From an uncultured Clostridia bacterium (GTDB lineage Bacteria; Bacillota; Clostridia; Christensenellales; UBA1242), in NCBI GenBank assembly GCA_930990975.1, contig CAKNRR010000001.1, forward strand, positions 73,756 to 137,755: 64,000 bases of DNA, written 5' to 3'. A model generated the notes under the pieces. That model saw only the letters and a program-made list of their open reading frames with translations, was not told the origin of the DNA and did no database searches. This document shows, piece by piece, positions 16,297 to 29,216 of the stretch. Numbering within the stretch: the first letter of the stretch is position 1; the number at the start of each line of letters is the position of its first letter. The position numbers and the translations under genes are program-made.

Positions 16297-16601
16297 GAAT
16301 AGTTGAAGAAAAGGATTTTGCAAATGAGATCAAAGAAGGCGTAGTCCTTGTTGACTTTTTTGCGACATGGTGTGGACCTTGCCGAATAATGGGACAAATT
16401 TTAGAAGATATTGCTGGTGAAGTTGAAGGCAAAGTTAAGGTGTTCAAAGTCGATGTTGACCAAAGCGGAGAGGTTGCAAGAAGCTTTGGCATCATGTCAA
16501 TCCCTACACTTATAATTTTCAAAGACGGCAAAGAACAGGAAAAACATGTTGGTATATGGCAATATGAAGATTGCGTAAATGCTCTTAAAAAGTATTTGTA
16601 A
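16293..16601 (+). CDS. trxA: Thioredoxin
   Basis: The 102-residue protein has the thioredoxin fold with the active site FFATWCGPCRIMGQIL, the cis-Pro SIPTLIIF and a typical length. I place the start at 16293, where AAAGGAGG lies four bases upstream and the ATG overlaps the tcdA stop codon; an upstream in-frame ATG inside tcdA would add 13 unusual residues. It reduces disulfides in cytosolic proteins. No reductase gene is present in the window. A terminator follows. Confidence 0.95.
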   Translation: MRIVEEKDFANEIKEGVVLVDFFATWCGPCRIMGQILEDIAGEVEGKVKVFKVDVDQSGEVARSFGIMSIPTLIIFKDGKEQEKHVGIWQYEDCVNALKKYL

Positions 16602-16635
16602 TAATTTAACATAAATCCGAAAAATTTTAACATTT

Positions 16636-16676
16636 AAAAACACCAAAATTAGCAAAATATTTTTTGGTGTTTTTTG
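16636..16676 (+). terminator. Terminator after thioredoxin
   Basis: AACACCAAAA pairs with TTTTGGTGTT across an AT-rich loop, followed by T5. Confidence 0.85.
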
Positions 16677-16696
16677 CTGGTTATTCGCACATGCTA

Positions 16697-16725
16697 TTGT
16701 TATTTAGCATTTTTTATGATATAAT
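16697..16725 (+). promoter_or_regulatory. Sigma-A type promoter for the LRR/unknown-domain gene
   Basis: TTGTTA at 16697-16702 and TATAAT at 16720-16725 are 17 bases apart, with the start codon 34 bases downstream. Confidence 0.6.
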
Positions 16726-16759
16726 AAACTAGAAATCAAATTATCAAAAGAGGGCTTAA

Positions 16760-18775
16760 ATGATTATAAAAAATGGTGTACTTGAAAAAATACATGAAGA
16801 TGACATTAAGAATGGGAAGGTAGTTGTACCACAAGGTGTTGAAAGTATAGCAAAAAATTGTTTTAAGGGTTACAAGTCTTTAGAATGGGTGGATTTACCA
16901 AACTCGTTAAAAATTATTGGTGAAAGTGCTTTTAATGATTCAGGATTAAAAGAAATAAGCATTCCAGATTCAGTAATAGAAATACAAGATGCTGGATTTG
17001 TAAAATGCGAAAATCTTAAAGAAGTGAAGTTTTCTAATAATCTAAAATCAATAGGAATGATGGCTTTTTCTCGATGCAATAATTTGAGAGACATAGAGCT
17101 GCCAGAAAGTTTACAATTTATAGGCAGCAGTGCTTTCTCTTTGGACCATGGATTAACTAAGATTAATATACCCAAAAATGTCAAAAAATTATATGATAAT
17201 ATTTTTTTAAACTGCAATAATATTGAAGAAATAGAATTATGTGACAGTTTATTGGATGTTGGAAATGGATATTTTGCAAAAGATAAATATCTTAATAGAC
17301 GGGGAGATAAATACATATTGTCATCAAAGCAAATGGATGGCGGAGAAAATTTACTTTTTGACAGTTTCAACAAAACCAAGTTGTTGCCTCTCGTTTTGAA
17401 ATATCCAAAAAAGGCAAAACTGTTTTTCAAAGATGCAGCATTTAGTGAAAATTATCTTTATTTAATGCAAAATTTTGGCGATATAAAAGAAATTCTTGAA
17501 AAAGATAAAAAAGAGATGGCTTATTTAAGACAAGTTCTTAAAATAGCAGAATCTAGGGATATTTATACAACAGATGAATCAAAAAAAGATTTTATAAAAT
17601 TTTATTACAACATAGGAGGTTTCTTGCCTCCTGTGACAGAAACAAGAGTGAGCAAAAGCGGTAATAGCATAACAACAACAGTAGACTATGCACAAAAGGT
17701 TGGAGAGTTTTTGAAACAAGAATTTGCAAGCGATGAACTGAAGATGAGCAATTTGCATAGCATTTTTGATTCTATGAAGCCAAATGGAGTAAAATTGGAA
17801 TTTACCAAATTTATTCTTGACAAAAATAATTTTGAATTGCTTTTGAAAGAAGAACGCAGGCAAACAGGATTTATTTCAAGATGTTATAATGAATTTGAAA
17901 AAGTGCAAGCAACAAATACGGCAAATAGGGGAAGCCAAAGACAACTTGTTCCAACTGTGGAAAAGTTTGTAGAATATTTCAAAGTTAATAAATTTAGCGG
18001 TGTAGATGAAAAAACAGAAAATATTGCAAAAACGATAAGTCCATATTTTTCTGATCAGGCAGCTTTTGACAGAGCCGTACAAATCAATAATGAAAGGGAA
18101 GCAAATCACATATCAAATAACATCACATCAAACCCAATCAGAGAAAATGATGTTTTTGAAACAATTGATAAAATGCAAGAAGATATAAAAATAAGCGAAC
18201 TAGATTCTTTAGATATGTTGAAAGAACTTGCAGATAAAAATTATACATATGAATTTGTTGAAAGAAATGATCCAATAAATTTTGTACTTGGGAAATTATG
18301 TTCATGTTGTGCTCATCTTGAAGGAGCAGGCTATGGAATAATGCATGCAAGTATTGTCAGCCCTGATGTACAAAATCTTGTAATAAAGGACAAAAAAGGG
18401 GAAATAATAGCAAAGTCCACACTTTATATAAATAGAGAACATGGGTATGGTGTGTTTAATAATGTCGAAGTAAACACAAATATTACTGAAGATGAAAAAA
18501 ATTCAATCTATAAAAAATATAAACAGGCTGTCAAACGCTTTGTCGATGAATACAATGCGGACAATCCAGACAAAAAAATAAGAAAAATCAATGTTGGAAT
18601 GAATTTGAATGATCTTTATAATCAAATAACTCAAAACGATAAAGAAGCAAATAAATTGTTGGAAGCAATAGATTATGCAACATCTTATGGAAATGGTGCA
18701 GGACATAATGGAGATAGCAGTGATTTGCAATATACATTGTATGATGCGGAGGATGAAAATGGCAAATCAGTTTAA
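16760..18775 (+). CDS. BspA-like LRR protein with a large uncharacterised C-terminal region
   Basis: The first ~175 of 671 residues are BspA/LRR_5 repeats (LKIIGESAFNDSGLKEISIPD, LKSIGMMAFSRCNNLRDIELP, LQFIGSSAF). No signal peptide or transmembrane helix precedes them, so the protein is probably cytoplasmic. Residues 180-470 are helical and unrecognised. Around residues 510-590 there is a compact domain with KLCSCCAHLEGAGYGIMHAS followed by LVIKDKKGEIIAKSTLYI and FNNVEVN, resembling an unnamed domain of phage and gut-bacterial proteins. That resemblance is from memory and uncertain. The end overlaps the next small gene by 17 bases, so the two are coupled. Confidence 0.6.
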   Translation: MIIKNGVLEKIHEDDIKNGKVVVPQGVESIAKNCFKGYKSLEWVDLPNSLKIIGESAFNDSGLKEISIPDSVIEIQDAGFVKCENLKEVKFSNNLKSIGMMAFSRCNNLRDIELPESLQFIGSSAFSLDHGLTKINIPKNVKKLYDNIFLNCNNIEEIELCDSLLDVGNGYFAKDKYLNRRGDKYILSSKQMDGGENLLFDSFNKTKLLPLVLKYPKKAKLFFKDAAFSENYLYLMQNFGDIKEILEKDKKEMAYLRQVLKIAESRDIYTTDESKKDFIKFYYNIGGFLPPVTETRVSKSGNSITTTVDYAQKVGEFLKQEFASDELKMSNLHSIFDSMKPNGVKLEFTKFILDKNNFELLLKEERRQTGFISRCYNEFEKVQATNTANRGSQRQLVPTVEKFVEYFKVNKFSGVDEKTENIAKTISPYFSDQAAFDRAVQINNEREANHISNNITSNPIRENDVFETIDKMQEDIKISELDSLDMLKELADKNYTYEFVERNDPINFVLGKLCSCCAHLEGAGYGIMHASIVSPDVQNLVIKDKKGEIIAKSTLYINREHGYGVFNNVEVNTNITEDEKNSIYKKYKQAVKRFVDEYNADNPDKKIRKINVGMNLNDLYNQITQNDKEANKLLEAIDYATSYGNGAGHNGDSSDLQYTLYDAEDENGKSV

Positions 18776-19001
18776 AAATAAAGAATATTTTGAATGCTTG
18801 CTTGAGCTTGAAAAATTACAAAAAGAGGAAGATAGTCTAAAAGTTAAAACAAAAAAATTAAAAGAGAACTATAAAAAGTCGCCTGAAGACGATAAAATTT
18901 TGAAAGATATAAAAGACCTAGAAGAAGAATATATGACATTGTATAAAAGACATGCGAAGCTAAACAATAAAATTAAAAAGATGTATAATGCTAGTAATTA
19001 A
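18759..19001 (+). CDS. Small lysine-rich coiled-coil protein
   Basis: This 80-residue, highly charged protein is predicted almost wholly coiled-coil by eye (heptad-like LLELEKLQKEEDSLKVKTKKL, LKDIKDLEEEYMTLYKRHAKL). I place the start at 18759, six bases after a GGAGG at 18748-18752 inside the end of the LRR gene. Coupled translation with that gene suggests a partner protein. I do not recognise a family. Confidence 0.6.
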   Translation: MANQFKNKEYFECLLELEKLQKEEDSLKVKTKKLKENYKKSPEDDKILKDIKDLEEEYMTLYKRHAKLNNKIKKMYNASN

Positions 19002-19095
19002 TAAAAATTCTTTAAAAAAATTAAATAAAAAGTCTTTTTATTCAAAAAAAAATACAAAAAAATGGTCAATTTTAATTAAATATGTTTTTATAATA

Positions 19096-19128
19096 AAAAA
19101 GAGGAATGTTTATTAATCCTCTTTTTTT
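19096..19128 (+). terminator. Terminator (possibly bidirectional) after the coiled-coil gene
   Basis: AAAGAGGA pairs with TCCTCTTT over an 11-base loop with a T-run on the plus strand. The A-run before it gives a T-run on the minus strand too. Confidence 0.8.
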
Positions 19129-19254
19129 GTTTATTTTTTTTAATTTATTATGCCAATTTTTTATTTTAAATTATATTCATAAATTAATTGCTGTTAATTT
19201 CGTGATAGTCAATCAACTTATGATGCTATGATTCGACTAAGCTTGTTTTTAAAG

Positions 19255-20157
19255 CTATAAAAACAAATCTTTATGTTTATAAAAGAAATTGAAATATTCT
19301 TTTGTGTTCTCCAGTTGCCACCATTTTTTAATGTCTACAGGAGTGCTGTCAAGATCATATATTTTCGCACCATCTATTGCAAGCACAAAAGGTGAGTGAG
19401 TTGCAATTACAAATTGACAGCCAAAATATTTCGCTTTATCTTTCAATAATTCAACCAAAATGTTTTGAAATTTGGGTGATAAACTGTTCTCTGGTTCATC
19501 TAAACAATACAGGCAGTTGTCTTCAAGCATTTTTTCAAAAAATTCAATAGCTGTTTCTCCATTGCTGTTTAATTTTACTTCTTTTCCTATTTCATTAAAG
19601 ATAAATTTTCTTCTTGTTAAAGATTTTTTTCTAGTCAATGTTTGCCTTTTGAATTCTTCATAATTCTCACTACCTTTCAAAAAAATAGTCTGGCCATATC
19701 TTAACTGGTTCCATTCATCCTTTTTTAGTTCAGTGTTTTCTAAGATGTTTTGATTGTTCTCTCTTGCTGAAATCATATAGTCGAATATGTCATCACTTGC
19801 AATAAGTCTGCTGTTGCAAGGAACTGATTTATAAAAATATTCTTCTTCGTCTTCTGCCATTAAAATTTTGCATTGGTCAACAAAGTCATCAAAAAGTTCA
19901 CTTGTGTTATAGTTTGAAATTCGTTTTAAATTGAGCTTTTTGGCAATTAAATTGAGCAGTGTACTTTTTCCAGAGCCATTTCCACCATATAAAATCGTGA
20001 TTGTTTCAAAATCAATTTCCGTTAAAAACTTGTAAGTGAAAATATTGCAAGGGTATGCGTTATCTAAAAATCCACCATTTTGCATAATTCTGTTAGTTAC
20101 TAAATTCTCTTCAACTTCAATGGAGGGGAGTTTGAATTTTTCAATATACTTTGCCAA
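19255..20157 (-). CDS. AAA family ATPase (AAA_21/ABC-like)
   Basis: The 300-residue protein has Walker A GGNGSGKSTLLNLIAKKL about 60 residues in, Walker B CLYCLDEPENSLSP, and the switch QFVIATHSPFVLAIDG, which is the pattern of SMC/RecF-like AAA ATPases. The start codon is a TTG with AGGAG seven bases upstream. It lies next to and divergent from the type I restriction genes. Small proteins of this type are common in clostridial genomes and several related ATPases take part in phage defence, but nothing in this sequence proves that. No nuclease partner gene is adjacent; the C-terminus (LENTKEYFNFFYKHKDLF) is typical of the clostridial group. Confidence 0.75.
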   Translation of the reverse strand: MAKYIEKFKLPSIEVEENLVTNRIMQNGGFLDNAYPCNIFTYKFLTEIDFETITILYGGNGSGKSTLLNLIAKKLNLKRISNYNTSELFDDFVDQCKILMAEDEEEYFYKSVPCNSRLIASDDIFDYMISARENNQNILENTELKKDEWNQLRYGQTIFLKGSENYEEFKRQTLTRKKSLTRRKFIFNEIGKEVKLNSNGETAIEFFEKMLEDNCLYCLDEPENSLSPKFQNILVELLKDKAKYFGCQFVIATHSPFVLAIDGAKIYDLDSTPVDIKKWWQLENTKEYFNFFYKHKDLFL

Positions 20158-20234
20158 AGTTTATCTCCTTTATACAAAGTATATCATAAATCCAAATTAT
20201 ATTACAATAAAAAGAGGTTTTATCAAACTTTTAT

Positions 20235-20278
20235 TTGTTCAAACAATACAACAATGATAAGAGAATTGTTCAAACAAT
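20235..20278. repeat. Pair of operator-like repeats
   Basis: TTGTTCAAACAAT occurs at 20235-20247 and again at 20266-20278, offset by 31 bases (about three helical turns). Each copy has dyad arms TTGTT/AACAA around CA, so each could bind a dimer. Confidence 0.55.
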
Positions 20279-20281
20279 CAC

Positions 20282-20308
20282 TTTACAAAATGACGCCATT
20301 TTTGTAAA
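20282..20308. promoter_or_regulatory. Operator-like dyad
   Basis: TTTACAAAATG at 20282-20292 faces CATTTTTGTAAA at 20297-20308; the arms match except for one extra base. No T-run follows, so an operator is likelier than a terminator. Confidence 0.45.
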
Positions 20309-20695
20309 AATTTTACAAAAGAAGTTATAGATATAAAATTTATACTCCATTTGTCAATTGACTTTTGAAATTTCAACAATAAAGCAAAAAATACTTTAAA
20401 AAATTGATAAACAAGCAAAAAAATAAATTTTTTATATGTTATAATTAATTTATCGTGATTATGTGTGATATTAACACTATTAAAAGTATTAAAGATGAAA
20501 AAATGGAAAATAAAAACAGCAATTGAGAGGAAACAAGCAAGCTAATGGTAAAAAATAACAAAGACAGTAAATAAAAATTTTTTCTTTTTTCTTTTGTAAA
20601 ATTATACAAAAAATAAAAAATATGTTATAATGTCATTAATAAGGTTCCGATAATAAAAAATTATAAGAATATAAAGGTGCGAGTGGAGGGCTAAA

Positions 20696-23071
20696 ATGAC
20701 CATTTTAAATAAAAAACAAATGACAGAAGAAGATATCAAACTAAATTATATTACTCCAGCAATTATAAACAAGGGTTGGAATGACAATATAACAATGGAA
20801 ACAAAAATTACCGACGGGAGAATTAATTTAAAAGGTAATATTGCAACAAGAGAAAGTCCTAAGAAGGCTGATTATGTTTTATATTTAAATAAAAACAATC
20901 CGATTGCTATTGTTGAAGCAAAGGATAATAATCATAGTATATCATTTGGCCTGCAGCAGGCTAAGTTATATGCAGAGATGTTAGATATTAAATTTGCTTA
21001 TAGTTCTAATGGTGATGGTTTTCAAGAGTTTGATTTTTTAACTGGCGACGAAAGAGAAATTTCACTTGAAGATTTTCCAACTTACGATGAGTTGGTTGCA
21101 AGATATCAAAGAGAAATGAATAAAGGTAATGGTTTAAATGAAATAGAGATAAAATTTATTAATCAGCCTTATTATTCAAGTCAAACAACATATTCTCCAA
21201 GGTATTACCAAAGAAATGCAATTAATAGAACATTAGATGCAATTGCTAAAGGACAGGATAGAATCTTGTTAGTTATGGCTACAGGCACTGGTAAAACTTA
21301 TACAGCTTTTCAAATAGTTTATAGGCTTTTGCAATCTGGAGCAAAACGAAAAATTTTATATCTTGCTGATAGAAATAATCTTATTGACCAAACAATTATA
21401 GGTGATTTTAAACCACTTGACAAAGTGATACATAAAATTAATTTTGCAAAAGATGACAAAACAACCATAAAATCTTATCAAGTTTATTTTTCTCTTTATC
21501 AACAACTTGTGGGGAGTAAGTCAGAAGAATCTGAAATAGAAGATGATGAGACAGAAGAGGAGATGATTGCTAGATATAGCAAATTGTTTGATAAGGATTT
21601 CTTTGATTTAATAATAGTGGATGAATGCCATCGAGGTAGTGCAAAAGCGGATAGTCGTTGGAGGAAAATACTTGAGTATTTTTCTTCTGCAACACAGATA
21701 GGAATGACTGCAACTCCAAAAGAAACAACTTATGTATCAAATATTGATTATTTTGGAGAACCTGTTTATAAGTATAGCTTAAAAGAAGGAATAGATGATG
21801 GATTTCTAGCACCATTTAAAGTTATAAATATCAAATCTGATATAAGTGATGGTTGGAGACCATTTAAGGGACAATGTGATATTTATGGGAATGAAATAGA
21901 GGATAGGATTTATAACAATAGCGATTATGACTATAAGATTATAATTCAAGATCGAATAGAAATGGTTGCTAGAGAAGTTACAGATTATTTAAAATCAACT
22001 GATAGAATGGCAAAAACTATAATTTTCTGTGCCACAGAAGATGCTGCAGAAAGAATGAGAATTGCAATCGCAAACCAAAACAAAGATATGATGAAACAAA
22101 ATCATGATTATGTTGTAAGAATTACTGGTAGTGATACCTATGGAAAAAGTAAATTATCGTATTTTACATCGGTTTCTGAAAATTATCCAGTTATTGCAAC
22201 TACATCAAAATTACTTTCAACAGGCGTTGATTGCAAAATGGTTAAGCTTATTGTTATTGATGAGATGATAAATTCAATGACCGAATTCAAGCAAATAATT
22301 GGCCGTGGAACTAGAATTAGGGAACAAGACGGAAAAACACATTTTATGATTATGGATTTTAGGGGAGTGACAAGATTATTTGCAGATCCTGATTGGGATG
22401 GGCCTATAGAACAAAAGGAAGGTTATAAAAAGGATGAACAAAGTGGGAAACCTAATAAACCTAAAACAATACCACCTTTGCCGCCCGGTAATCCGAATAA
22501 ATATGTAGTTGATAGCAACGGCTGCAAAGTAGAGGTATTGCAAAAAATAGTTTCGATATATGATGTTGATGGCAAATTGTTAAAACAAGAAAGTATTATT
22601 GATTACACAAAGGCAAATATTTTTGGTCAATTTGCAACACTTAATGATTTTATAAATACTTGGACATTTGAGAAAAAGAAAGAAAAAATTCATGATTTAT
22701 TTTTTGAAAAAGGAATTGATTTAGAACAAGTCAAGGCAGAAGAAAATATGTCAGATGTTGATGATTTTGATTTTATTTGCCATATTGCATACAATCAAAA
22801 ACCATTAACAAGGAAAGAACGTGCAGAAAATGTAAAGAAACGCAATGTATTTGCAAAATATGGCGAAGCTGCAAGAGCAGTGATAGATGCTTTGTTAGAT
22901 AAATATACTGACACGAGTGTCTATGAAATAGAAGATACAGATGTGTTAAAACTTGAACCATTCACCAGATTTGGTAAGCCTTCAAAAATTGCACAACTTT
23001 TTGGTGGCAAAGAAGGGTATTTAGAGGTAATACAATTATTAAAAGAAGAATTATATAAGGCGGTAGCGTAA
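20696..23071 (+). CDS. hsdR: Type I restriction endonuclease subunit R
   Basis: The 791-residue HsdR motor-nuclease has an N-terminal PD-(D/E)XK nuclease core (KKADYVLYL, then IAIVEAKDN), a superfamily 2 helicase with Walker A MATGTGKTYTAF, a DEAD-type box IIVDECHRGS and the motif TATPKET, and the C-terminal helicase half with GRGTRIRE. It translocates DNA and cuts far from the recognition site when complexed with HsdM and HsdS. The short length and EcoEI-like C-terminus fit the type I subfamily seen with EcoEI/EcoAI. The start follows GGAGGGCTAAA. hsdM begins two bases after its stop codon. Confidence 0.95.
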   Translation: MTILNKKQMTEEDIKLNYITPAIINKGWNDNITMETKITDGRINLKGNIATRESPKKADYVLYLNKNNPIAIVEAKDNNHSISFGLQQAKLYAEMLDIKFAYSSNGDGFQEFDFLTGDEREISLEDFPTYDELVARYQREMNKGNGLNEIEIKFINQPYYSSQTTYSPRYYQRNAINRTLDAIAKGQDRILLVMATGTGKTYTAFQIVYRLLQSGAKRKILYLADRNNLIDQTIIGDFKPLDKVIHKINFAKDDKTTIKSYQVYFSLYQQLVGSKSEESEIEDDETEEEMIARYSKLFDKDFFDLIIVDECHRGSAKADSRWRKILEYFSSATQIGMTATPKETTYVSNIDYFGEPVYKYSLKEGIDDGFLAPFKVINIKSDISDGWRPFKGQCDIYGNEIEDRIYNNSDYDYKIIIQDRIEMVAREVTDYLKSTDRMAKTIIFCATEDAAERMRIAIANQNKDMMKQNHDYVVRITGSDTYGKSKLSYFTSVSENYPVIATTSKLLSTGVDCKMVKLIVIDEMINSMTEFKQIIGRGTRIREQDGKTHFMIMDFRGVTRLFADPDWDGPIEQKEGYKKDEQSGKPNKPKTIPPLPPGNPNKYVVDSNGCKVEVLQKIVSIYDVDGKLLKQESIIDYTKANIFGQFATLNDFINTWTFEKKKEKIHDLFFEKGIDLEQVKAEENMSDVDDFDFICHIAYNQKPLTRKERAENVKKRNVFAKYGEAARAVIDALLDKYTDTSVYEIEDTDVLKLEPFTRFGKPSKIAQLFGGKEGYLEVIQLLKEELYKAVA

Positions 23072-23072
23072 G

Positions 23073-24584
23073 ATGAGTAATGTATCAGGATTTGTAAAAA
23101 GAGTAAGAGATATAATGCGTAATGACGCAGGTATAAACGGAGATGCACAAAGAATTGAGCAAATTGCTTGGATGCTTTTCTTAAAAGTTTATGACAGCAA
23201 GGAGTATGACTGGGATATGGAAGAAGATAATTATGAATCTATTATCCCAGAGCAGTGTCGTTGGAGAAATTGGGCTCATGATGAAACTGGCAGGGGATTG
23301 ACGGGTGATGCTTTATTGAATTTTGTGAATAACACACTTTTCCCTGTATTAAAAGGAAATGATGTAAAGGATAGTAATGGCAACATTTTAATTAAAGGCA
23401 TAGAAGTTTCAAAAGATACACCAATTAAGAAAGCTATAGTAAAGACTACTTTTGAAGATGCAAACAACTATATGAAAGATGGTGTTTTACTGCGTCAAGT
23501 TATTGATGTTATAGATGAGTTAGATTTAAGTGATTATAATGAAAGTCATGCTTTTGGTGAAATTTATGAGACTATTCTTCGTGAATTGCAAAGCGCAGGT
23601 GCTGCAGGTGAATTCTATACACCAAGAGCTGTAACTGATTTTATGGCAAAAATGATAAAGCCACAAATTGGGGAACATATGGCTGATTTTGCTTGTGGGA
23701 CTGGCGGTTTTTTAGTTAGTTGGCTTAATGAACTAAATAAAAATAAGATTTCAACCGATGATGTGGAAGAATATGAAAATTCTGTTTATGGTATAGAGAA
23801 AAAGCAATTTCCATATATGCTTTGTGTAACAAATCTTTTGTTGCATGATATTGATGTACCTAGGGTATATCATGACAATTCCCTTATTCGTGATGTATTA
23901 GATTATACTGCTAAAGATAAATTCGAAGTTATTTTAATGAATCCGCCTTATGGTGGAAATGAAAAAGCTGAAATAAAAAATCATTTTCCAGCAGACTTGG
24001 CAAGCAGTGAAACAGCTGATTTATTTATGGCAGTAATAATGTATAGGTTAAAAGAAAATGGCAGGGCAGCAGTAATCTTGCCAGATGGCTTTTTATTCGG
24101 AACAGATAATGCAAAAGTCAACATAAAGAAAAAATTATTCTCAGAATTTAATGTTCACACAATTATAAGAATGCCGCATAGCGTTTTTGCACCTTATACA
24201 TCTATAACAACAAATATTCTTTTCTTTGATAAAACTGGCGGGACGAAGGAAACTTGGTTTTATAGATTAGATATGCCAGAAGGCTATAAAAACTTTTCTA
24301 AAACAAAACCAATGAAATTAGAGCATTTTGAACCAGTGATGAAATGGTGGGAATATCGTGAAGAAATAGTTGTTGATGATTTTCCTAAATCTAAAAAGTA
24401 TGCAATAAAAGAAATTATTGATAATAATTATGATATAGATTTTTGTAAGTATCCGCACGAGGAAGAAGAAATTTTAGCTCCACAAGACTTGATAAGCCAA
24501 TACAGAGAAAAAAGGGCAAGCCTTGATGCAAATATTGAAAAAGTATTATCTGAAATAATGAATTTGCTAGGAGAACAAAAATGA
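23073..24584 (+). CDS. hsdM: Type I restriction-modification methyltransferase subunit M
   Basis: The 503-residue N6-adenine methyltransferase has an N-terminal helical HsdM domain (IEQIAWMLFLKVYDSKEYDW), the GEFYTPRAVTDFM motif, S-adenosylmethionine motif I ADFACGTGGF and catalytic motif IV NPPYGG. With HsdS it methylates the recognition sequence to protect it from HsdR. The ATG lies directly after hsdR, and the end overlaps hsdS by four bases (ATGA), so R, M and S form one transcript. Confidence 0.96.
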   Translation: MSNVSGFVKRVRDIMRNDAGINGDAQRIEQIAWMLFLKVYDSKEYDWDMEEDNYESIIPEQCRWRNWAHDETGRGLTGDALLNFVNNTLFPVLKGNDVKDSNGNILIKGIEVSKDTPIKKAIVKTTFEDANNYMKDGVLLRQVIDVIDELDLSDYNESHAFGEIYETILRELQSAGAAGEFYTPRAVTDFMAKMIKPQIGEHMADFACGTGGFLVSWLNELNKNKISTDDVEEYENSVYGIEKKQFPYMLCVTNLLLHDIDVPRVYHDNSLIRDVLDYTAKDKFEVILMNPPYGGNEKAEIKNHFPADLASSETADLFMAVIMYRLKENGRAAVILPDGFLFGTDNAKVNIKKKLFSEFNVHTIIRMPHSVFAPYTSITTNILFFDKTGGTKETWFYRLDMPEGYKNFSKTKPMKLEHFEPVMKWWEYREEIVVDDFPKSKKYAIKEIIDNNYDIDFCKYPHEEEEILAPQDLISQYREKRASLDANIEKVLSEIMNLLGEQK

Positions 24585-26068
24585 AAGCTGAGCAATTAAG
24601 AAAATCAATTCTCCAGCTTGCAATACAGGGGAAATTAGTTCCACAAGATCCAAATGACGAGCCAGCAAGCGTATTGTTAGAGCGTATTCGTGCAGAGAAA
24701 CAAAAACTTATCAAAGAAGGAAAAATTAAAAAAGATAAAACAGATTCTATAATTTATAAAGGTGATGATAATTGCTATTATGAGAAGGACGGGAGCGAAG
24801 TAAGAAATATCACCGACGAAATACCTTTTGAGATACCCGATAGTTGGGTATTTACTAAATTAGAATTTTTTACAAAATCTATAGGAAATAAAAAAAATCA
24901 AATACAAACAAAAAACATTTTGAAAGAAGGCTTGTTTCCTGTAATAAGCCAAGGGAAAAATTTTATAGATGGATATTCAAATAATTACTCTAAAGTAATT
25001 CATTTAAATAATACCCCCGCAATAATGTTTGGTGATCATACCAAAAATGTAAAATATATAAATTTTGATTTTATTATAGGAGCGGATGGAACAAAATTTT
25101 TTACACCATATCTTGCAAACCCAAAATATATTTATTATGCAATTTTGTATTTTTCTTATATAATAGATTCTAGAGGTTATGCAAGACATTACAGTTTATT
25201 AAAAAAACAATTTTTCCCCTTACCACCTCTAGCGGAGCAAGAACGTATTGTAAAAGAGATAGAAAGATATGAGCCACTAATTGCTGAGTATGATAAACTT
25301 GAGAAAGAATCCACAGAATTAGATAGTGAAATAAAGAACAAACTAAAGAAGTCAATTTTACAATATGCTCTACAAGGAAAGCTTGTAGAGCAAGATCCAA
25401 ACGATGAGCCAGCTAGTGTTTTACTTGAAAAAATTAGAGCTGAAAAGAAAGCAAAACTTGGCAAGAAATATGTTGACAGTTACATCTATAAAGGTGACGA
25501 TAACTGTTATTATGAGAAGATTGGAGATTCAATTACTAATATCACAGATTTAATACCATTTGAAATACCTAAAAATTGGGCTTTAGCAAGATTGGGAAAT
25601 ATCGGAGATTGGGGTGCTGGAGCTACACCCAACAGGACAATCGCTGAATATTATAATGGAAATATACCTTGGTTAAAAACTGGTGAATTAAACAATGGAA
25701 TCGTATATGATAGTGTCGAAAAAGTAACAGAAAAAGCACTCAAAGAATGTTCTCTAAGATACAATAAAAAGGGAGATGTTTTAATTGCTATGTATGGAGC
25801 AACTATTGGTAAATTAGCAATCGCTGGAATTGATTTAACAACAAATCAAGCCTGCTGTGCATGCACTCCAAATAATAACATACATAATATATTTTTGTTT
25901 TATTATTTAATGTCTCAAAAAGATAATTTTATAAAAATGGGAGAAGGTGGCGCGCAACCAAATATTTCAAGAGAAAAATTAATAAATTTTATAATACCAA
26001 TTCCACCATACAAAGAACAATTAAAAATAATTAACAAAATAGATATATTTTTAAAATTAATAGAATAA
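24581..26068 (+). CDS. hsdS: Type I specificity subunit S, expressed copy of a phase-variable locus
   Basis: The 495-residue protein has a first conserved repeat (LRKSILQLAIQGKLVPQDP), first TRD (about 75-210), central conserved helices (LKKSILQYALQGKLVEQDP), and second TRD (about 320-495, beginning EIPKNWALARLGN and ending IPPYKEQLKIINKIDIF). Each TRD reads one half of a split DNA target. Starts of both TRDs and the central helix region are duplicated in inverse orientation downstream, so both TRDs can be exchanged. It overlaps hsdM by ATGA and is followed by a strong terminator. It is the only hsdS copy here with a start codon and ribosome binding site. Confidence 0.95.
   Translation: MKAEQLRKSILQLAIQGKLVPQDPNDEPASVLLERIRAEKQKLIKEGKIKKDKTDSIIYKGDDNCYYEKDGSEVRNITDEIPFEIPDSWVFTKLEFFTKSIGNKKNQIQTKNILKEGLFPVISQGKNFIDGYSNNYSKVIHLNNTPAIMFGDHTKNVKYINFDFIIGADGTKFFTPYLANPKYIYYAILYFSYIIDSRGYARHYSLLKKQFFPLPPLAEQERIVKEIERYEPLIAEYDKLEKESTELDSEIKNKLKKSILQYALQGKLVEQDPNDEPASVLLEKIRAEKKAKLGKKYVDSYIYKGDDNCYYEKIGDSITNITDLIPFEIPKNWALARLGNIGDWGAGATPNRTIAEYYNGNIPWLKTGELNNGIVYDSVEKVTEKALKECSLRYNKKGDVLIAMYGATIGKLAIAGIDLTTNQACCACTPNNNIHNIFLFYYLMSQKDNFIKMGEGGAQPNISREKLINFIIPIPPYKEQLKIINKIDIFLKLIE
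24768..24822 (+). repeat. Inverted repeat A, active arm (start of TRD1)
   Basis: This 55-base segment recurs in inverted orientation at 28831-28885 with only two mismatches. It encodes the conserved lead-in to the first TRD, so recombination would exchange TRD1 in frame. Confidence 0.85.
25276..25515 (+). repeat. Inverted repeat B, active arm (central conserved region)
   Basis: About 240 bases of central hsdS sequence recur inverted at 28141-28380 with few differences. Crossover here would swap the second TRD with that of the distal cassette. Confidence 0.85.
25504..25580 (+). repeat. Inverted repeat C, active arm (start of TRD2)
   Basis: These 77 bases recur inverted at 26589-26665 with a single mismatch. 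They encode CYYEKIGDSITNITDLIPFE and lie directly before the second TRD. Inversion would replace the active TRD2 with the one in the adjacent silent cassette. Confidence 0.92.
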
Positions 26069-26097
26069 AAGACAAGAATTTAATTCTTGTCTTTTAA
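26067..26097. terminator. Bidirectional terminator between hsdS and the silent cassette
   Basis: AAAAGACAAGAA pairs with TTCTTGTCTTTT over a five-base loop, with A- and T-runs on both sides. It can end transcripts from either direction. Confidence 0.85.
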
Positions 26098-26667
26098 CTT
26101 TACAAATATATTTTCTAATTTTTCCACAATTTTATTTTGTTCATTAGTTGACAGTAAAGGAAATAATGAATTAGAGACTTTATTTATATTTAAATTTTTC
26201 ACAACTGCACCAGATACAGAGTTACAAAATTGTTCATAAGCAAATCTGGAAGATAATAAGTAATATAAAAAATCAACGGTATATACATTATACAAATTAG
26301 AAAATACTAACCATCCATCATGAATGCAGCCATCAATATTTGATATATAGGGTTGACCAAAACTCATTGAATTAGTCAAGAGAAAATCTCCTTTGTGTAT
26401 CATCTTGCTGTATTTTATTCCTGACAACTTAATTTTTTGTTTTGTATTATTAATAAATTTTTCACCTTTTATTGTATCCCCTATTTTTATCCAGTTTATG
26501 CCACTTTTTTCATTAGTTATATATTCTTGAATAGGTCTTGGCGAACCTCCTCTAGCGATTTCTAATACTTGGTTTAATCTAATCCATTCCCAATTATTAG
26601 GTATTTCAAATGGTATTAAATCTGTGATATTAGTAATTGAATCTCCAATCTTCTCATAATAACAGAA
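26080..26667 (-). pseudogene. Silent hsdS cassette 1: one TRD2-type specificity half
   Basis: The minus-strand frame is open for 195 codons and begins just after a TAA with CYYEKIGDSITNITDLIPFE, identical to the lead-in of the expressed second TRD. It continues NNWEWIRLNQVLEIARGGSP, a different TRD, and ends with the usual LFPLLSTNEQNKIVEKLENIF tail. There is no start codon, ribosome binding site or promoter at the true beginning; an internal ATG near 26427 lies in the middle of the TRD. This is a storage copy that becomes expressed only after inversion through repeat C. Confidence 0.85.
26589..26665 (-). repeat. Inverted repeat C, silent arm
   Basis: Inverse copy of 25504-25580 with one mismatch in 77 bases; identity stops abruptly at both ends. 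Confidence 0.92.
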
Positions 26668-26743
26668 TTAGACTATTATATTTAATATTTTAATTGTGTT
26701 GTAAAATGTATTTATCACTTTAAATTTAAGGAGGTAAATACAA

Positions 26744-27547
26744 ATGATAAGTGAATTTAAAATAAAATTGCAAAAGGAAAATTTATCAGAAAACACGATA
26801 TCTTCTTACATCTTGACGATTAAAATGTATCAACAACTTTTTGATGATTTTTCAAAACAAAATCTACTGGCTTTTAAGGGTTATTTAATGGAAACTTACA
26901 AGCCCAAAACTGTTAATTTGCGCATTCAAGCAATTAACAAATATTTAGAATTTATAAAAAAAGAAAAGTTGAGATTATCTTCAGTAAAAATTCAGCAAAA
27001 AAATTTTTTAGAAAATGTTATTAGTGATGCTGACTATAAATTCTTAAAAAATTGTCTCAAAAAAGATAAAAATTGGGAGTGGTATTTTGTTGTAAGATAC
27101 CTGGCTGCAACTGGTGCACGAGTAAGTGAATTGATACAAATAAAGGTTGAACATGTCTTTATCGGATATTTTGATTTATACTCAAAAGGCGGCAAGCTAA
27201 GACGTCTTTACATACCCAAAAAATTAAAAAACGAAACGGAAGTTTGGCTTAATGAAAATAATATAAAAAGTGGTTATTTATTTCTTAATAGGTTTGGTCA
27301 AAGGATAACTGTTCGCGGAATTTCTCAGCAGTTAAAAAATTATGCTTATAAATACGGCTTAAATCCAAAAGTTGTATACCCACACTCTTTTAGACATCGC
27401 TTTGCTAAAAATTTTTTAGAAAAATACAATGATATTTCATTACTTGCAGATCTTATGGGGCATGAAAGTATTGAAACTACACGTATCTATTTAAGAAAAA
27501 CGGCAAGCGAACAACAAGAAATCGTTGATAAAGTAGTCACTTGGTAA
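26744..27547 (+). CDS. Tyrosine recombinase, probable hsdS invertase
   Basis: The 267-residue protein has an N-terminal SAM-like core-binding domain and a C-terminal catalytic domain with the full tyrosine recombinase set: Arg in ATGARVSEL, HSFRHRFA (His-x-x-Arg), GHESIETT and the nucleophile in TRIYLRK. It belongs to the XerC/D-like group that includes the recombinases of invertible hsdS loci. It sits between the two silent cassettes, has a strong AAGGAGG ribosome binding site, and ends in a terminator. It lies inside the large segments bounded by repeats A and B, so those inversions would flip the gene itself. Confidence 0.9.
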   Translation: MISEFKIKLQKENLSENTISSYILTIKMYQQLFDDFSKQNLLAFKGYLMETYKPKTVNLRIQAINKYLEFIKKEKLRLSSVKIQQKNFLENVISDADYKFLKNCLKKDKNWEWYFVVRYLAATGARVSELIQIKVEHVFIGYFDLYSKGGKLRRLYIPKKLKNETEVWLNENNIKSGYLFLNRFGQRITVRGISQQLKNYAYKYGLNPKVVYPHSFRHRFAKNFLEKYNDISLLADLMGHESIETTRIYLRKTASEQQEIVDKVVTW

Positions 27548-27549
27548 AC

Positions 27550-27580
27550 AAAAAATCTCTCATAATTTGAGAGATTTTTT
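27550..27580. terminator. Bidirectional terminator between recombinase and silent cassette 2
   Basis: AAAAATCTCTC pairs with GAGAGATTTTT over a six-base loop, flanked by A- and T-runs. Confidence 0.85.
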
Positions 27581-28140
27581 ATAATTTTGAAAACATTTCG
27601 TCAATTTTATTTACAATTCTTTTTTGCTCTGCAAGTGGCGGTAAGGGTACAAATATTTTATTTAGTTTCTTTGAATTTAATGTTGAACCTTTTATAGCAT
27701 CAGTTTGATCTACATAGTTAACTAGTAATCCTAAAGTGTTAAATAAATAATTTCGTGTAATATTTTCTTTTGATACATAAGGATATATTGAAATTATTGC
27801 TTCGTTATGGACTGCATCAAAATTTATTATTGACGTTTTTCCAACTGTCAATTTAAAACTCATTAAAAGCGTGCCCTTAGGCGATAATTTATTATTAAAT
27901 TTTTCTTTTAAAGCTATGGCACTTATTTTTTCTTTCGTATTATCAATATAACTTCTTTCTTTTAAATCTGAAATAGAGCACCAATGAAACTCACCATTAG
28001 ACCAAAATTTATCATTATGTCTATCTGGTGTTTTCCCTAATTCAAAATAAACAATATCAGAAAATCTAGACCAGCACCAATTATCGGGTATATCAAAAGG
28101 GATTTCATCGGTGATATTTATGTCTTTTCCGTTGGTGTGT

Positions 28141-28380
28141 TCATAATAACAGTTATCATCACCTTTATAGATGTAACTATCAACATATTTTTTGCCAAGT
28201 TTTGCTTTCTTTTCAGCTCTAATTTTTTCAAGCAAAACACTAGCTGGCTTATCGTTTGGATCTTGCTCTACAAGCTTTCCTTGTATAGCATATTGTAAAA
28301 TAGATTTCTTTAGTTTATCCTTTATTTCACTATCCAATTTTGTAGATTCTTGCTCAAGTTTATCATACTCAGCAATTAGT
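28141..28380 (-). repeat. Inverted repeat B, silent arm
   Basis: Inverse, near-identical copy of 25276-25515, within silent cassette 2. Confidence 0.85.
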
Positions 28381-28830
28381 AGCTCGTATTTTTTTATCTC
28401 TTTTACAATTTTTTCTTGTTCTTCTTTAGGAGGTATCCCTATAAGGATAGATTTAAAAAGCATTTTATTTAAATGGGGAATAGCTGCACCTTTTTTGTTG
28501 TCTCTAAAAATTTGTTTATGATATAATAATAAAAAATTTAAATATTCATCATTTATTTCTTTACTATATGCCAATATTTTAAATGTGCTCCCCATGTAAC
28601 CTTTATATGGAACATTAAATACTTCTCCAGAGTTTTCTCCATCAACTAAGATTACTTTTGTTCCAGTATTAACAATTTTACCTTCATTAACAAACTGTAT
28701 TTCTGCTTTACCTCTTAAAGTTTTTGCATCTAAATATGGTAAAGATTCACCAGCTGTTTTTGAAGATTCATTCAACCAACAAACAAAAGATAGTCTAGAT
28801 ATTTCCCAACTACCAGGTATTTCAAATGGA

Positions 28831-28885
28831 ATTTCGTCGGTGATATTTCTTATCTCGCTCCCGTCCTTCTCATAATAGCAATTAT
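28831..28885 (-). repeat. Inverted repeat A, silent arm
   Basis: Inverse copy of 24768-24822 with two mismatches, at the start of silent cassette 2; it bounds the largest (about 4.1 kb) invertible segment. Confidence 0.85.
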
Positions 28886-28904
28886 TAGCATAATTAAAGA
28901 GCAA

Positions 28905-29216
28905 TTAATTCTGCTATTAACAATGATTTTAAAATTATTATAAAAAGCGTTGATGAAATAAAGAATTTAGGGGAAATAGAAAACTTGTCTAATTAGAAAA
29001 AACACTTTTGTTACAAATTTTTATAGCTAAAACCAATTTTTAATATAGTTAAGTTTGTTTAGTAATGTGAAAGTAGTAATTTGATTAAAAAGTCTTTTTT
29101 TATAAATTATGGGGAATATAGCAAAAAAATATATATTTTTTTAATTTTCATACCAAAATTTAGAAATTAATAAAAAATAGGCAGTTACGCAAATAATATT
29201 TTATATAAAAAGAATA
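28905..29216. other. Spacer with a short coding remnant
   Basis: No complete gene is seen. On the plus strand, about 30 sense codons ending in TAG near 28998 read as a plausible protein tail (INNDFKIIIKSVDEIKNLGE). It begins just outside repeat A and has no start signal, so it looks like the end of a gene cut by the arrival of the invertible locus. The rest is AT-rich. Confidence 0.35.

What the first reader, a model, noticed from the sequence alone, without database searches (positions are those of the whole stretch)
24581..28904. Phase-variable type I restriction locus with a 2 x 3 TRD pool
The active hsdS is followed by an inverted one-TRD cassette and an inverted two-TRD cassette, neither with start signals. 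Two first-half and three second-half TRDs are available, so up to six S subunits could arise. Changing S specificity changes the methylome and can switch gene expression, as shown for the pneumococcal SpnIII/ivr locus, which has the same 2 x 3 logic. The presence of intact frames in silent cassettes argues for active use.
Basis: partly seen in the sequence, partly recalled or inferred. Interest (0 to 1): 0.88.

Follow-up and report, generated by a model that had tools for sequence, protein, structure and literature searches.

The report
Six-way invertible DNA-methylation switch

Summary
hsdR and hsdM (20696-24584) lead into an active hsdS (24581-26068).

Three inverted-repeat pairs link them. 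By enumeration, inversions reach 8 arrangements and 6 S alleles, as in pneumococcal SpnIII/cod.

Inverting the window in silico at each pair predicts three other active S proteins. All three are in the protein database residue for residue (P0123, P0005, P0004), and so is the silent partner of one (P0001, from its second residue).

The recombinase is 65% identical to a protein annotated PsrA. Each TRD start carries a 15-mer 2-4 bases from the published CreX/PsrA site (CTCTT+ATTATGGGAA). The one-base variant CTCTTATTATGAGAA recurs in relatives, with codon choice far from expectation. In all 28 complete loci where they could be compared (of 32), the five bases before the core differ between the first and second TRD of the same gene, like an address.

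Verdict: a new member of the SpnIII/cod kind. Untested: catalysis, switching rate, methylation motifs and gene-expression effects.

The parts
20696..23071 (+). hsdR, EcoAI/FtnUII-family type I restriction subunit (791 aa)
   Evidence: NCBIfam NF046051 1058 bits against cut-off 550; Pfam ResIII, EcoEI_R_C, HSDR_N_2
23073..24584 (+). hsdM, N6-adenine methyltransferase subunit (503 aa)
   Evidence: Pfam N6_Mtase 225.6 bits, HsdM_N 46.5 bits
24581..26068 (+). active hsdS (TRD 1A + TRD 2A), start overlapping the end of hsdM
   Evidence: Methylase_S, 2 stretches; sequence
26080..26665 (-). silent half cassette hsdS'' (TRD 2B)
   Evidence: Methylase_S 39.4 bits; 77-nt inverted repeat with the start of TRD 2A
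26744..27547 (+). PsrA/CreX-family tyrosine recombinase (267 aa), with AAGGAGG (predicted ribosome-binding site) upstream
   Evidence: Phage_integrase 93.5 bits; 65% over 100% to a plasmid gene annotated psrA; aligned over nearly its whole length to XerA-type recombinases; sequence
27579..28904 (-). silent two-TRD cassette hsdS' (TRD 1B + TRD 2C); the 109-nt repeat with hsdS ends at 28890, the ORF itself opens at a TTG
   Evidence: Methylase_S, 2 stretches; inverted repeats
24772..24787 (+). predicted recombination site at TRD 1A, TTGCTATTATGAGAAG
25504..25519 (+). predicted recombination site at TRD 2A, CTGTTATTATGAGAAG
26650..26665 (-). predicted recombination site at TRD 2B, CTGTTATTATGAGAAG
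28137..28152 (-). predicted recombination site at TRD 2C, CTGTTATTATGAACAC (right arm diverged)
28866..28881 (-). predicted recombination site at TRD 1B, TTGCTATTATGAGAAG
25221..25515 (+). central inverted repeat, partner 28141-28435 (-), 295 nt, 91%
24763..24871 (+). 5' inverted repeat, partner 28782-28890 (-), 109 nt, 83%, 31-nt exact run
25504..25580 (+). half-cassette inverted repeat, partner 26589-26665 (-), 77 nt, 99%
26066..26096 (.). symmetrical hairpin between the converging ends of hsdS and the half cassette; terminator-like, inside the invertible block
   Evidence: 2 terminator-like sites found, 1.8 expected by shuffling, so position rather than number is the argument
27550..27580 (.). 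symmetrical hairpin between the converging ends of the recombinase and the silent cassette; terminator-like

Best explanation
The locus is a type I restriction-modification operon whose active hsdS lies beside an inverted half cassette, a PsrA/CreX-family recombinase gene and an inverted two-TRD cassette, and DNA inversion at three inverted-repeat pairs, likely catalysed by that recombinase, would give up to six S subunits of predicted different DNA specificity. Shown by sequence: the gene order, the repeats, the shared 11-mer at all five TRD starts, and the exact active-gene products of all three single inversions in a protein database. Inferred: the recombinase cuts in the ATTAT(G) core shared by the five sites. 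The 5' pair swaps both TRDs, the central pair swaps TRD2, and the half pair swaps TRD2 with the half cassette. The block from TRD2A to TRD2C is rigid except for the 2A/2B swap, so 2 x 2 x 2 = 8 arrangements arise. Predicted, not tested: each S directs HsdM (and HsdR) to a different bipartite motif, so cells of one clone would differ in methylome and in the phages and DNA they restrict; effects on gene expression would follow as in the pneumococcus.
For: Exact alleles: in-silico inversion gives P0123 (497/497), P0005 (498/498) and P0004 (502/502) as active proteins, and P0001 as the silent partner of the full flip, equal from its second residue on (sequences). P0123 and P0001 have the same longest contig length, 429,058, so they probably lie on one contig. 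Residues that tell the copies apart bound each crossover, and in site coordinates the three bounds overlap only on the 13 nt CTGTTATTATGAG or its TRD1 equivalent. The recombinase is 65% identical over 100% to S. dysgalactiae 'PsrA'. The published CreX core is ATTATGGGAA, with CTCTT upstream in two of three repeats (PMC6620402 passage); the relatives' consensus is CTCTT ATTATGAGAA. Near-exact sites: 102 in 70 loci against 2.0 in block-shuffled copies. YYEK codons are exactly TATTATGAGAAG in 34 of 37 half cassettes and 29 of 29 left TRD2 starts, with 2.4 and 1.8 expected. Where hsdM is visible (42 of 80 relatives), it lies left of the recombinase and in its direction in 21, right and opposed in 20, right and in its direction in 1, as expected if the inner block flips freely.
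Against: Alleles 1B-2A and 1B-2B (two and three steps away) were not among the 120 listed matches to TRD 1B (7,999 candidates, 7,918 at E <= 0.001). No reads were available, so the database alleles could be fixed strain differences. P0004 and P0005 rest on one contig each. The silent partner of P0005 (1B-2A) was not found. In pneumococcus the long-repeat flips still occur without CreX (PMC6620402, passages). The window's five sites differ from the published 15-mer by 2 (2A, 2B) to 4 (1A, 1B, 2C) bases. The S. dysgalactiae psrA locus and two Mycoplasmopsis relatives lack the relatives' motif within 2 mismatches, and 18 of 70 loci have no site within 1 mismatch. No usable negative control for the codon test could be built: 1 YYEK site in 27 hsdS loci from relatives other than the recombinase-bearing G058 and G015.
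Confidence: 0.88

Rival explanations
1. The alleles are strain polymorphism built by rare exchange over evolutionary time, not phase variation within a clone.
For: The database evidence is between contigs, not within one culture. Related proteins carry further TRDs (P0002, P0012, P0092, P0124), so slow TRD turnover also happens.
Against: The three exact products differ from the window by single inversions and by no other residue over 497-502 aa. The intact recombinase, the codon-level conservation of the site and the near 50:50 orientation of the inner block across relatives point to continuing inversion.
Confidence: 0.12
2. Inversion at the two longer repeats is driven mainly by recombinase-independent processes, and the recombinase serves only the half-cassette pair.
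For: In pneumococcus CreX loss abolishes only the 15-bp-repeat flip; the 333-bp flip is reduced and the 85-bp flip unaffected (PMC6620402, passages). The 2C site has lost the right arm.
Against: Another group reports PsrA as dominant at all three repeats through IR1-like sequences (PMC7096588 introduction). All five TRD starts here share the 11-mer, and left and right TRD1 sites share both arms in 26 of 26 complete loci that could be compared, of 32.
Confidence: 0.3
3. The selected role is mainly defence diversification (changing which phage and plasmid DNA is restricted), with little programmed gene regulation.
For: HsdR is full-length and of the EcoAI family. HsdM of at least 50% identity is found in only 1 of 60 other same-genus genomes searched, so a regulon conserved across the genus is unlikely to depend on it. 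The locus lies in a segment absent next to iscS in 10 of 11 related loci checked.
Against: No functional data either way; SpnIII shows that regulation can follow from the same anatomy.
Confidence: 0.5
4. The cassettes are decaying duplicates that no longer switch.
For: None beyond the missing start signals, which the mechanism requires.
Against: Open frames, TRDs that retain the Methylase_S domain, and active alleles in the database that use 2B, 2C and 1B.
Confidence: 0.02

Closest known systems
Streptococcus pneumoniae SpnIII / ivr / cod (Spn556II) with PsrA = CreX = IvrR
   Same: Same set and order of parts (active hsdS, half cassette, recombinase, two-TRD cassette); three inverted-repeat pairs; 8 inversion arrangements and 6 alleles; site core differing by one base at four of five sites (ATTATGAGAA here, ATTATGGGAA there); second-half sites sharing an upstream pentamer and first-half sites having another (papers)
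   Different: Host lineage (Clostridia-type organism); recombinase compared here only with a PsrA annotated in another streptococcus (65%); window pentamers CTGTT and TTGCT instead of CTCTT and GAAAC; methylation and phenotype untested
Inverting type I systems of the REBASE survey (Listeria, Enterococcus faecalis, S. suis, Ruminococcus and others; PMC7394358)
   Same: Duplicated inverted hsdS with repeats, often with a recombinase; E. faecalis plasmid relatives here are 66.5% in the recombinase
   Different: That survey asked for exact 20-bp repeats near annotated hsdS genes; it did not describe a shared recombination site in the parts I read (section 6 and passages)
hCom2 inverton group 145 (PMC11892184, section 7 and passages read)
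   Same: Gut-bacterial invertons overlapping hsdS with a tyrosine recombinase enriched nearby
   Different: Groups come from a defined community; no link to PsrA or to this locus in what I read

Membership tests
SpnIII/cod-type inverting type I R-M | hsdR, hsdM and one expressed hsdS in tandem | tested here: met
   Gene content and order, (expression itself not tested)
SpnIII/cod-type inverting type I R-M | inverted extra hsdS cassettes without their own start | tested here: met
SpnIII/cod-type inverting type I R-M | locus-encoded PsrA/CreX-family tyrosine recombinase | tested here: met
   65% over 100% of the query to a gene annotated psrA; R, K, HxxR, H and Y aligned to XerA-type chains (the catalytic roles of these residues are recalled)
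SpnIII/cod-type inverting type I R-M | three inverted-repeat pairs giving 8 arrangements and 6 alleles | tested here: met
   pneumococcal numbers from PMC4948785 section 7
SpnIII/cod-type inverting type I R-M | conserved 10-bp core ATTATGGGAA in all repeats | tested here: inconclusive
   One-base variant ATTATGAGAA at 4 of 5 sites; the fifth (2C) reads ATTATGAACA, three bases off the published core (published core)
SpnIII/cod-type inverting type I R-M | inversion products exist in nature | tested here: met
   3 of 3 single-inversion active proteins found exactly; 4 of 6 alleles counting the window's own
SpnIII/cod-type inverting type I R-M | different 6mA motif per S allele | not testable with these tools
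   needs methylation sequencing
phasevarion | expression of several genes changes with the allele | not testable with these tools
   needs locked variants and RNA-seq

The most novel reading that the evidence does not exclude
PsrA-family loci in many bacterial groups share an addressed recombination site. The core ATTAT(G) is the crossover. The right arm GAGAAG is kept where a pair needs it. The five bases on the left are an address, the same among second-half TRDs of a locus (mostly CTCTT) and different from that of its first-half TRDs (TTTRC, TCGCY, GAAAC or TTGCT), so that a first-half TRD cannot be inverted onto a second-half one to make a truncated S. In the window the two addresses even differ by synonymous codons only (AAT TGC against AAC TGT).
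Probability: 0.35. Interest if true: 0.62.

Novelty: new member of a known kind. Interest (0 to 1): 0.46.

Why it matters
It extends a six-way epigenetic switch studied mainly in the pneumococcus, with its recombinase family and a closely related site, to a 1.4-Mb Clostridia-type genome and to a broad set of Clostridia, Bacteroidales and other bacteria. It supplies natural, residue-exact evidence that the alternative alleles exist. If the conserved site is what the recombinase reads, two open points become testable in a simple plasmid assay: whether PsrA acts at all three repeat pairs (on which two groups disagree), and what keeps first-half and second-half TRDs apart.

Tried and rejected
A second TRD source elsewhere in the genome: the own genome has one more Methylase_S match (contig C12, a one-TRD hsdS in another type I locus); the central repeat has no match there or anywhere outside the window's locus.

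Site equal to the CYYE codons in all relatives: TG[CT]TA[CT]TA[CT]GA is absent from 74 of 88 loci scanned. The conserved word proved to be shifted and shorter, ATTATGAGAAG with CTCTT before it.

Codon control on hsdS loci without a recombinase: 27 loci gave one YYEK site, so it says nothing about codons. L147 and L151 (recombinase-bearing G058 and G015) were left out; the recombinase status of the remaining 27 was judged, where matches of 68% or more were confined to G058, G010, G015 and the own genome.

Cross-class inversions (1A with 2B or 2C; 2A with 1B): predicted products of 258 and 254 aa, and a run-on read only to the script's 700-codon limit, are not among the proteins fetched by then. 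This fits the view that they are rare but is weak.

Literature search for the relatives' site word TTATTATGAG: 57 papers, and the 15 listed are unrelated by title; for ATTATGGGAA: 44 papers, and of the 10 listed only PMC6620402 is on hsdS. I therefore cannot say that the cross-phylum site is unpublished beyond these.

Full report
WHAT IS THERE. The window holds hsdR (20696-23071), hsdM (23073-24584) and an hsdS whose start overlaps hsdM (24581-26068), all on the plus strand. They are followed by a one-TRD piece on the minus strand (26080-26665), a 267-aa tyrosine recombinase gene on the plus strand (26744-27547) and a two-TRD piece on the minus strand (27579-28904). HsdR belongs to the EcoAI/FtnUII family (1058 bits, cut-off 550), HsdM has N6_Mtase and HsdM_N, and all three S pieces have Methylase_S. 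The five TRDs are 28-38% identical to one another.

REPEATS. Three inverted pairs link the active gene to the silent pieces: 109 nt at 83% at the TRD1 start, 295 nt at 91% through the central region, and 77 nt at 99% at the TRD2 start with the half cassette. The word TG[CT]TATTATGA occurs five times in 64 kb, once at each TRD start; 0.25 expected.

EXACT PRODUCTS IN THE DATABASE. I inverted the window in silico at each pair and translated the result. The full flip gives an active protein equal to P0123 (497 of 497 residues) and a silent cassette equal to P0001 from the second residue on. The central flip gives P0005 (498 of 498). The half flip gives P0004 (502 of 502). These proteins came from two searches of 5.8 billion sequences (7,999 candidates and 120 listed in each; sequences). 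P0123 and P0001 share a longest contig length of 429,058 bases, so they probably lie on one contig, as a full flip demands. Of six possible alleles, four are thus seen (window 1A-2A, P0004 1A-2B, P0005 1A-2C, P0123 1B-2C). 1B-2A and 1B-2B, two and three steps from the window's state, were not among the 120 listed matches to TRD 1B, and the silent 1B-2A partner of P0005 was not found. P0238 (158 aa, 10 contigs) is TRD 2A on its own and fits 2A parked in the half position, but truncated contigs could give the same. The evidence is between contigs; it does not measure switching in one culture.

ARRANGEMENTS. Enumerating the three moves gives 8 arrangements and all 6 alleles. The stretch from TRD2A through the half cassette and recombinase to TRD2C always moves as one block, so 2C never faces the half cassette. 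Pneumococcal cod/Spn556II has the same parts (hsdSA, hsdSB, psrA, hsdSC), with 15-bp, 298-bp and 85-bp repeats and eight inversion forms (PMC4948785 section 7; PMC7096588 introduction).

RECOMBINASE. It aligns over nearly its whole length to XerA-type enzymes in the PDB. In plasmid records it is 65% identical to a gene annotated psrA (S. dysgalactiae, 100% coverage) and 66.5% to E. faecalis genes. Among the 60 other same-genus genomes searched, 3 hold a match of 68-79%; every other match in that call, the own genome's recombinase apart, is 38% or lower. In GTDB genomes 118 of 194 candidate stretches encode a relative; the best 80 were kept, 67-89% identical, with record titles from Clostridia, Bacteroidales, Treponema, Synergistales and others.

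RELATIVES. Of these 80 loci, 69 have hsdS near the recombinase, 58 have an antisense hsdS half directly upstream of it, and 31 show the complete four-part anatomy; 11 have no hsdS that my queries detect, and many contigs end within the locus. hsdM was visible in 42: left of the recombinase and in its direction in 21, right and opposed in 20, right and in its direction in 1. This is what free flipping of the inner block predicts.

THE SITE. De Ste Croix et al. report a 10-bp CreX core ATTATGGGAA in all three pneumococcal repeats, with CTCTT before it in the 15-bp and 333-bp repeats and GAAAC in the 85-bp repeat (PMC6620402, passages). I found the relatives' word before reading this. TTATTATGAGAAG within one mismatch occurs 102 times in the 69 relatives with hsdS plus the window, against 2.0 in copies shuffled in 100-base blocks; 18 of the 70 have none. 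YYEK is written TATTATGAGAAG in 34 of 37 half cassettes and 29 of 29 left TRD2 starts, against 2.4 and 1.8 expected from codon usage, and in 16 of 29 other places against 2.0. Shared ancestry inflates these counts, and no usable negative control was possible. The window's own sites differ from the published 15-mer by 2 bases (2A, 2B) or 4 bases (1A, 1B, 2C). Among 32 complete loci (31 relatives plus the window), taking those where both sites keep ATTAT: left TRD2 and half share the left pentamer in 30 of 31 and the right arm in 26 of 31; left TRD2 and right TRD2 share the left pentamer in 26 of 28 and the right arm in 0 of 28; left and right TRD1 share both in 26 of 26; left TRD1 and left TRD2 share the left pentamer in 0 of 28 and the right arm in 22 of 28. 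The same procedure on shuffled loci gives left-pentamer agreement in 0 of 116, 1 of 184 and 1 of 180 for the first three pairs. Partners that exchange are expected to be alike; what is not expected from that alone is the constancy between species and the strict difference between TRD1 and TRD2. Sites were picked as the best match in a position range, and close relatives were not thinned. The 16-mer was not found within two mismatches in the S. dysgalactiae psrA plasmid stretch or in two Mycoplasmopsis plasmids; the S. dysgalactiae repeats include GAAACCTTATGAGAAGTT, which resembles the pneumococcal 85-bp type.

CROSSOVERS. Residues that differ between copies bound the full flip to 24768-24799, the central flip to 25407-25516 and the half flip to 25504-25572 (read). 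In site coordinates these overlap only on CTGTTATTATGAG or its TRD1 equivalent.

HOW IT LIKELY WORKS. The operon expresses one S. The recombinase, behind a predicted ribosome-binding site of its own, likely pairs two inverted sites and exchanges strands in the core. Symmetrical hairpins lie between the converging gene ends (26066-26096, 27550-27580) and could stop transcription in either orientation (one search finds two terminator-like sites, chance level 1.8, so this is suggestive only). New S subunits are predicted to redirect HsdM and HsdR. For the longer repeats two groups disagree on how much depends on the recombinase (PMC6620402; PMC7096588), and the window cannot settle it.

CONTEXT. 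Ten of 11 same-genus iscS loci have homologous sequence of window 15.1-16.6 kb upstream of iscS within the roughly 1.45 kb seen; L163 does not, and L167 has only the last part at the edge of the stretch. So about 12.6 kb, from 16.6 to 29.2 kb, including this locus, is variable DNA. hsdM relatives of at least 50% identity occur in 1 of 60 other same-genus genomes searched (52%).

VERDICT. New member of a known kind, with unusually direct database evidence for the alternative alleles. The most novel reading is the addressed site. Papers: PMC4948785 (section 7, passages), PMC7096588 (outline with abstract, sections 3 and 7, passages), PMC6620402 (outline with abstract, passages), PMC7394358 (outline with abstract, section 6, passages), PMC11892184 (section 7, passages), PMC5903667 (passages); others only as search listings.

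Noticed in passing
L120 2989-8301 (own genome, contig C12): A second type I locus with hsdR and hsdM on one strand and a single one-TRD hsdS inverted between them; no recombinase match on that contig at E <= 0.001.
   Followed up: partly
window 19255-20157 (-): 300-aa AAA ATPase beside hsdR, with partial PtuA/AriA-type defence matches.
   Followed up: no
window 16600-29200: Variable segment of about 12.6 kb between sequences that lie close together in 10 of 11 same-genus iscS loci checked (one of them only at the edge of the stretch).
   Followed up: partly
P0092 (protein database): A related cassette carries a TRD2A-like domain in the first position, so TRDs seem also to move between the two positions on longer time scales.
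   Followed up: no
P0002, P0012, P0124: Proteins with the same N-terminus or silent leader carry further TRDs, so the population pool is larger than 2 x 3.
   Followed up: no
L067, L074, L082, L089, L092, L093, L096, L100, L103, L104, L111: Recombinase relatives with no hsdS detected by my queries nearby; some lie mid-contig and may serve another invertible locus.
   Followed up: no
L131, L132 (Mycoplasmopsis plasmids): Recombinase 63-64% identical beside several short hsdS genes; both loci share a different repeat containing TAGTTAACACTAT, so the site may have changed in that lineage.
   Followed up: partly
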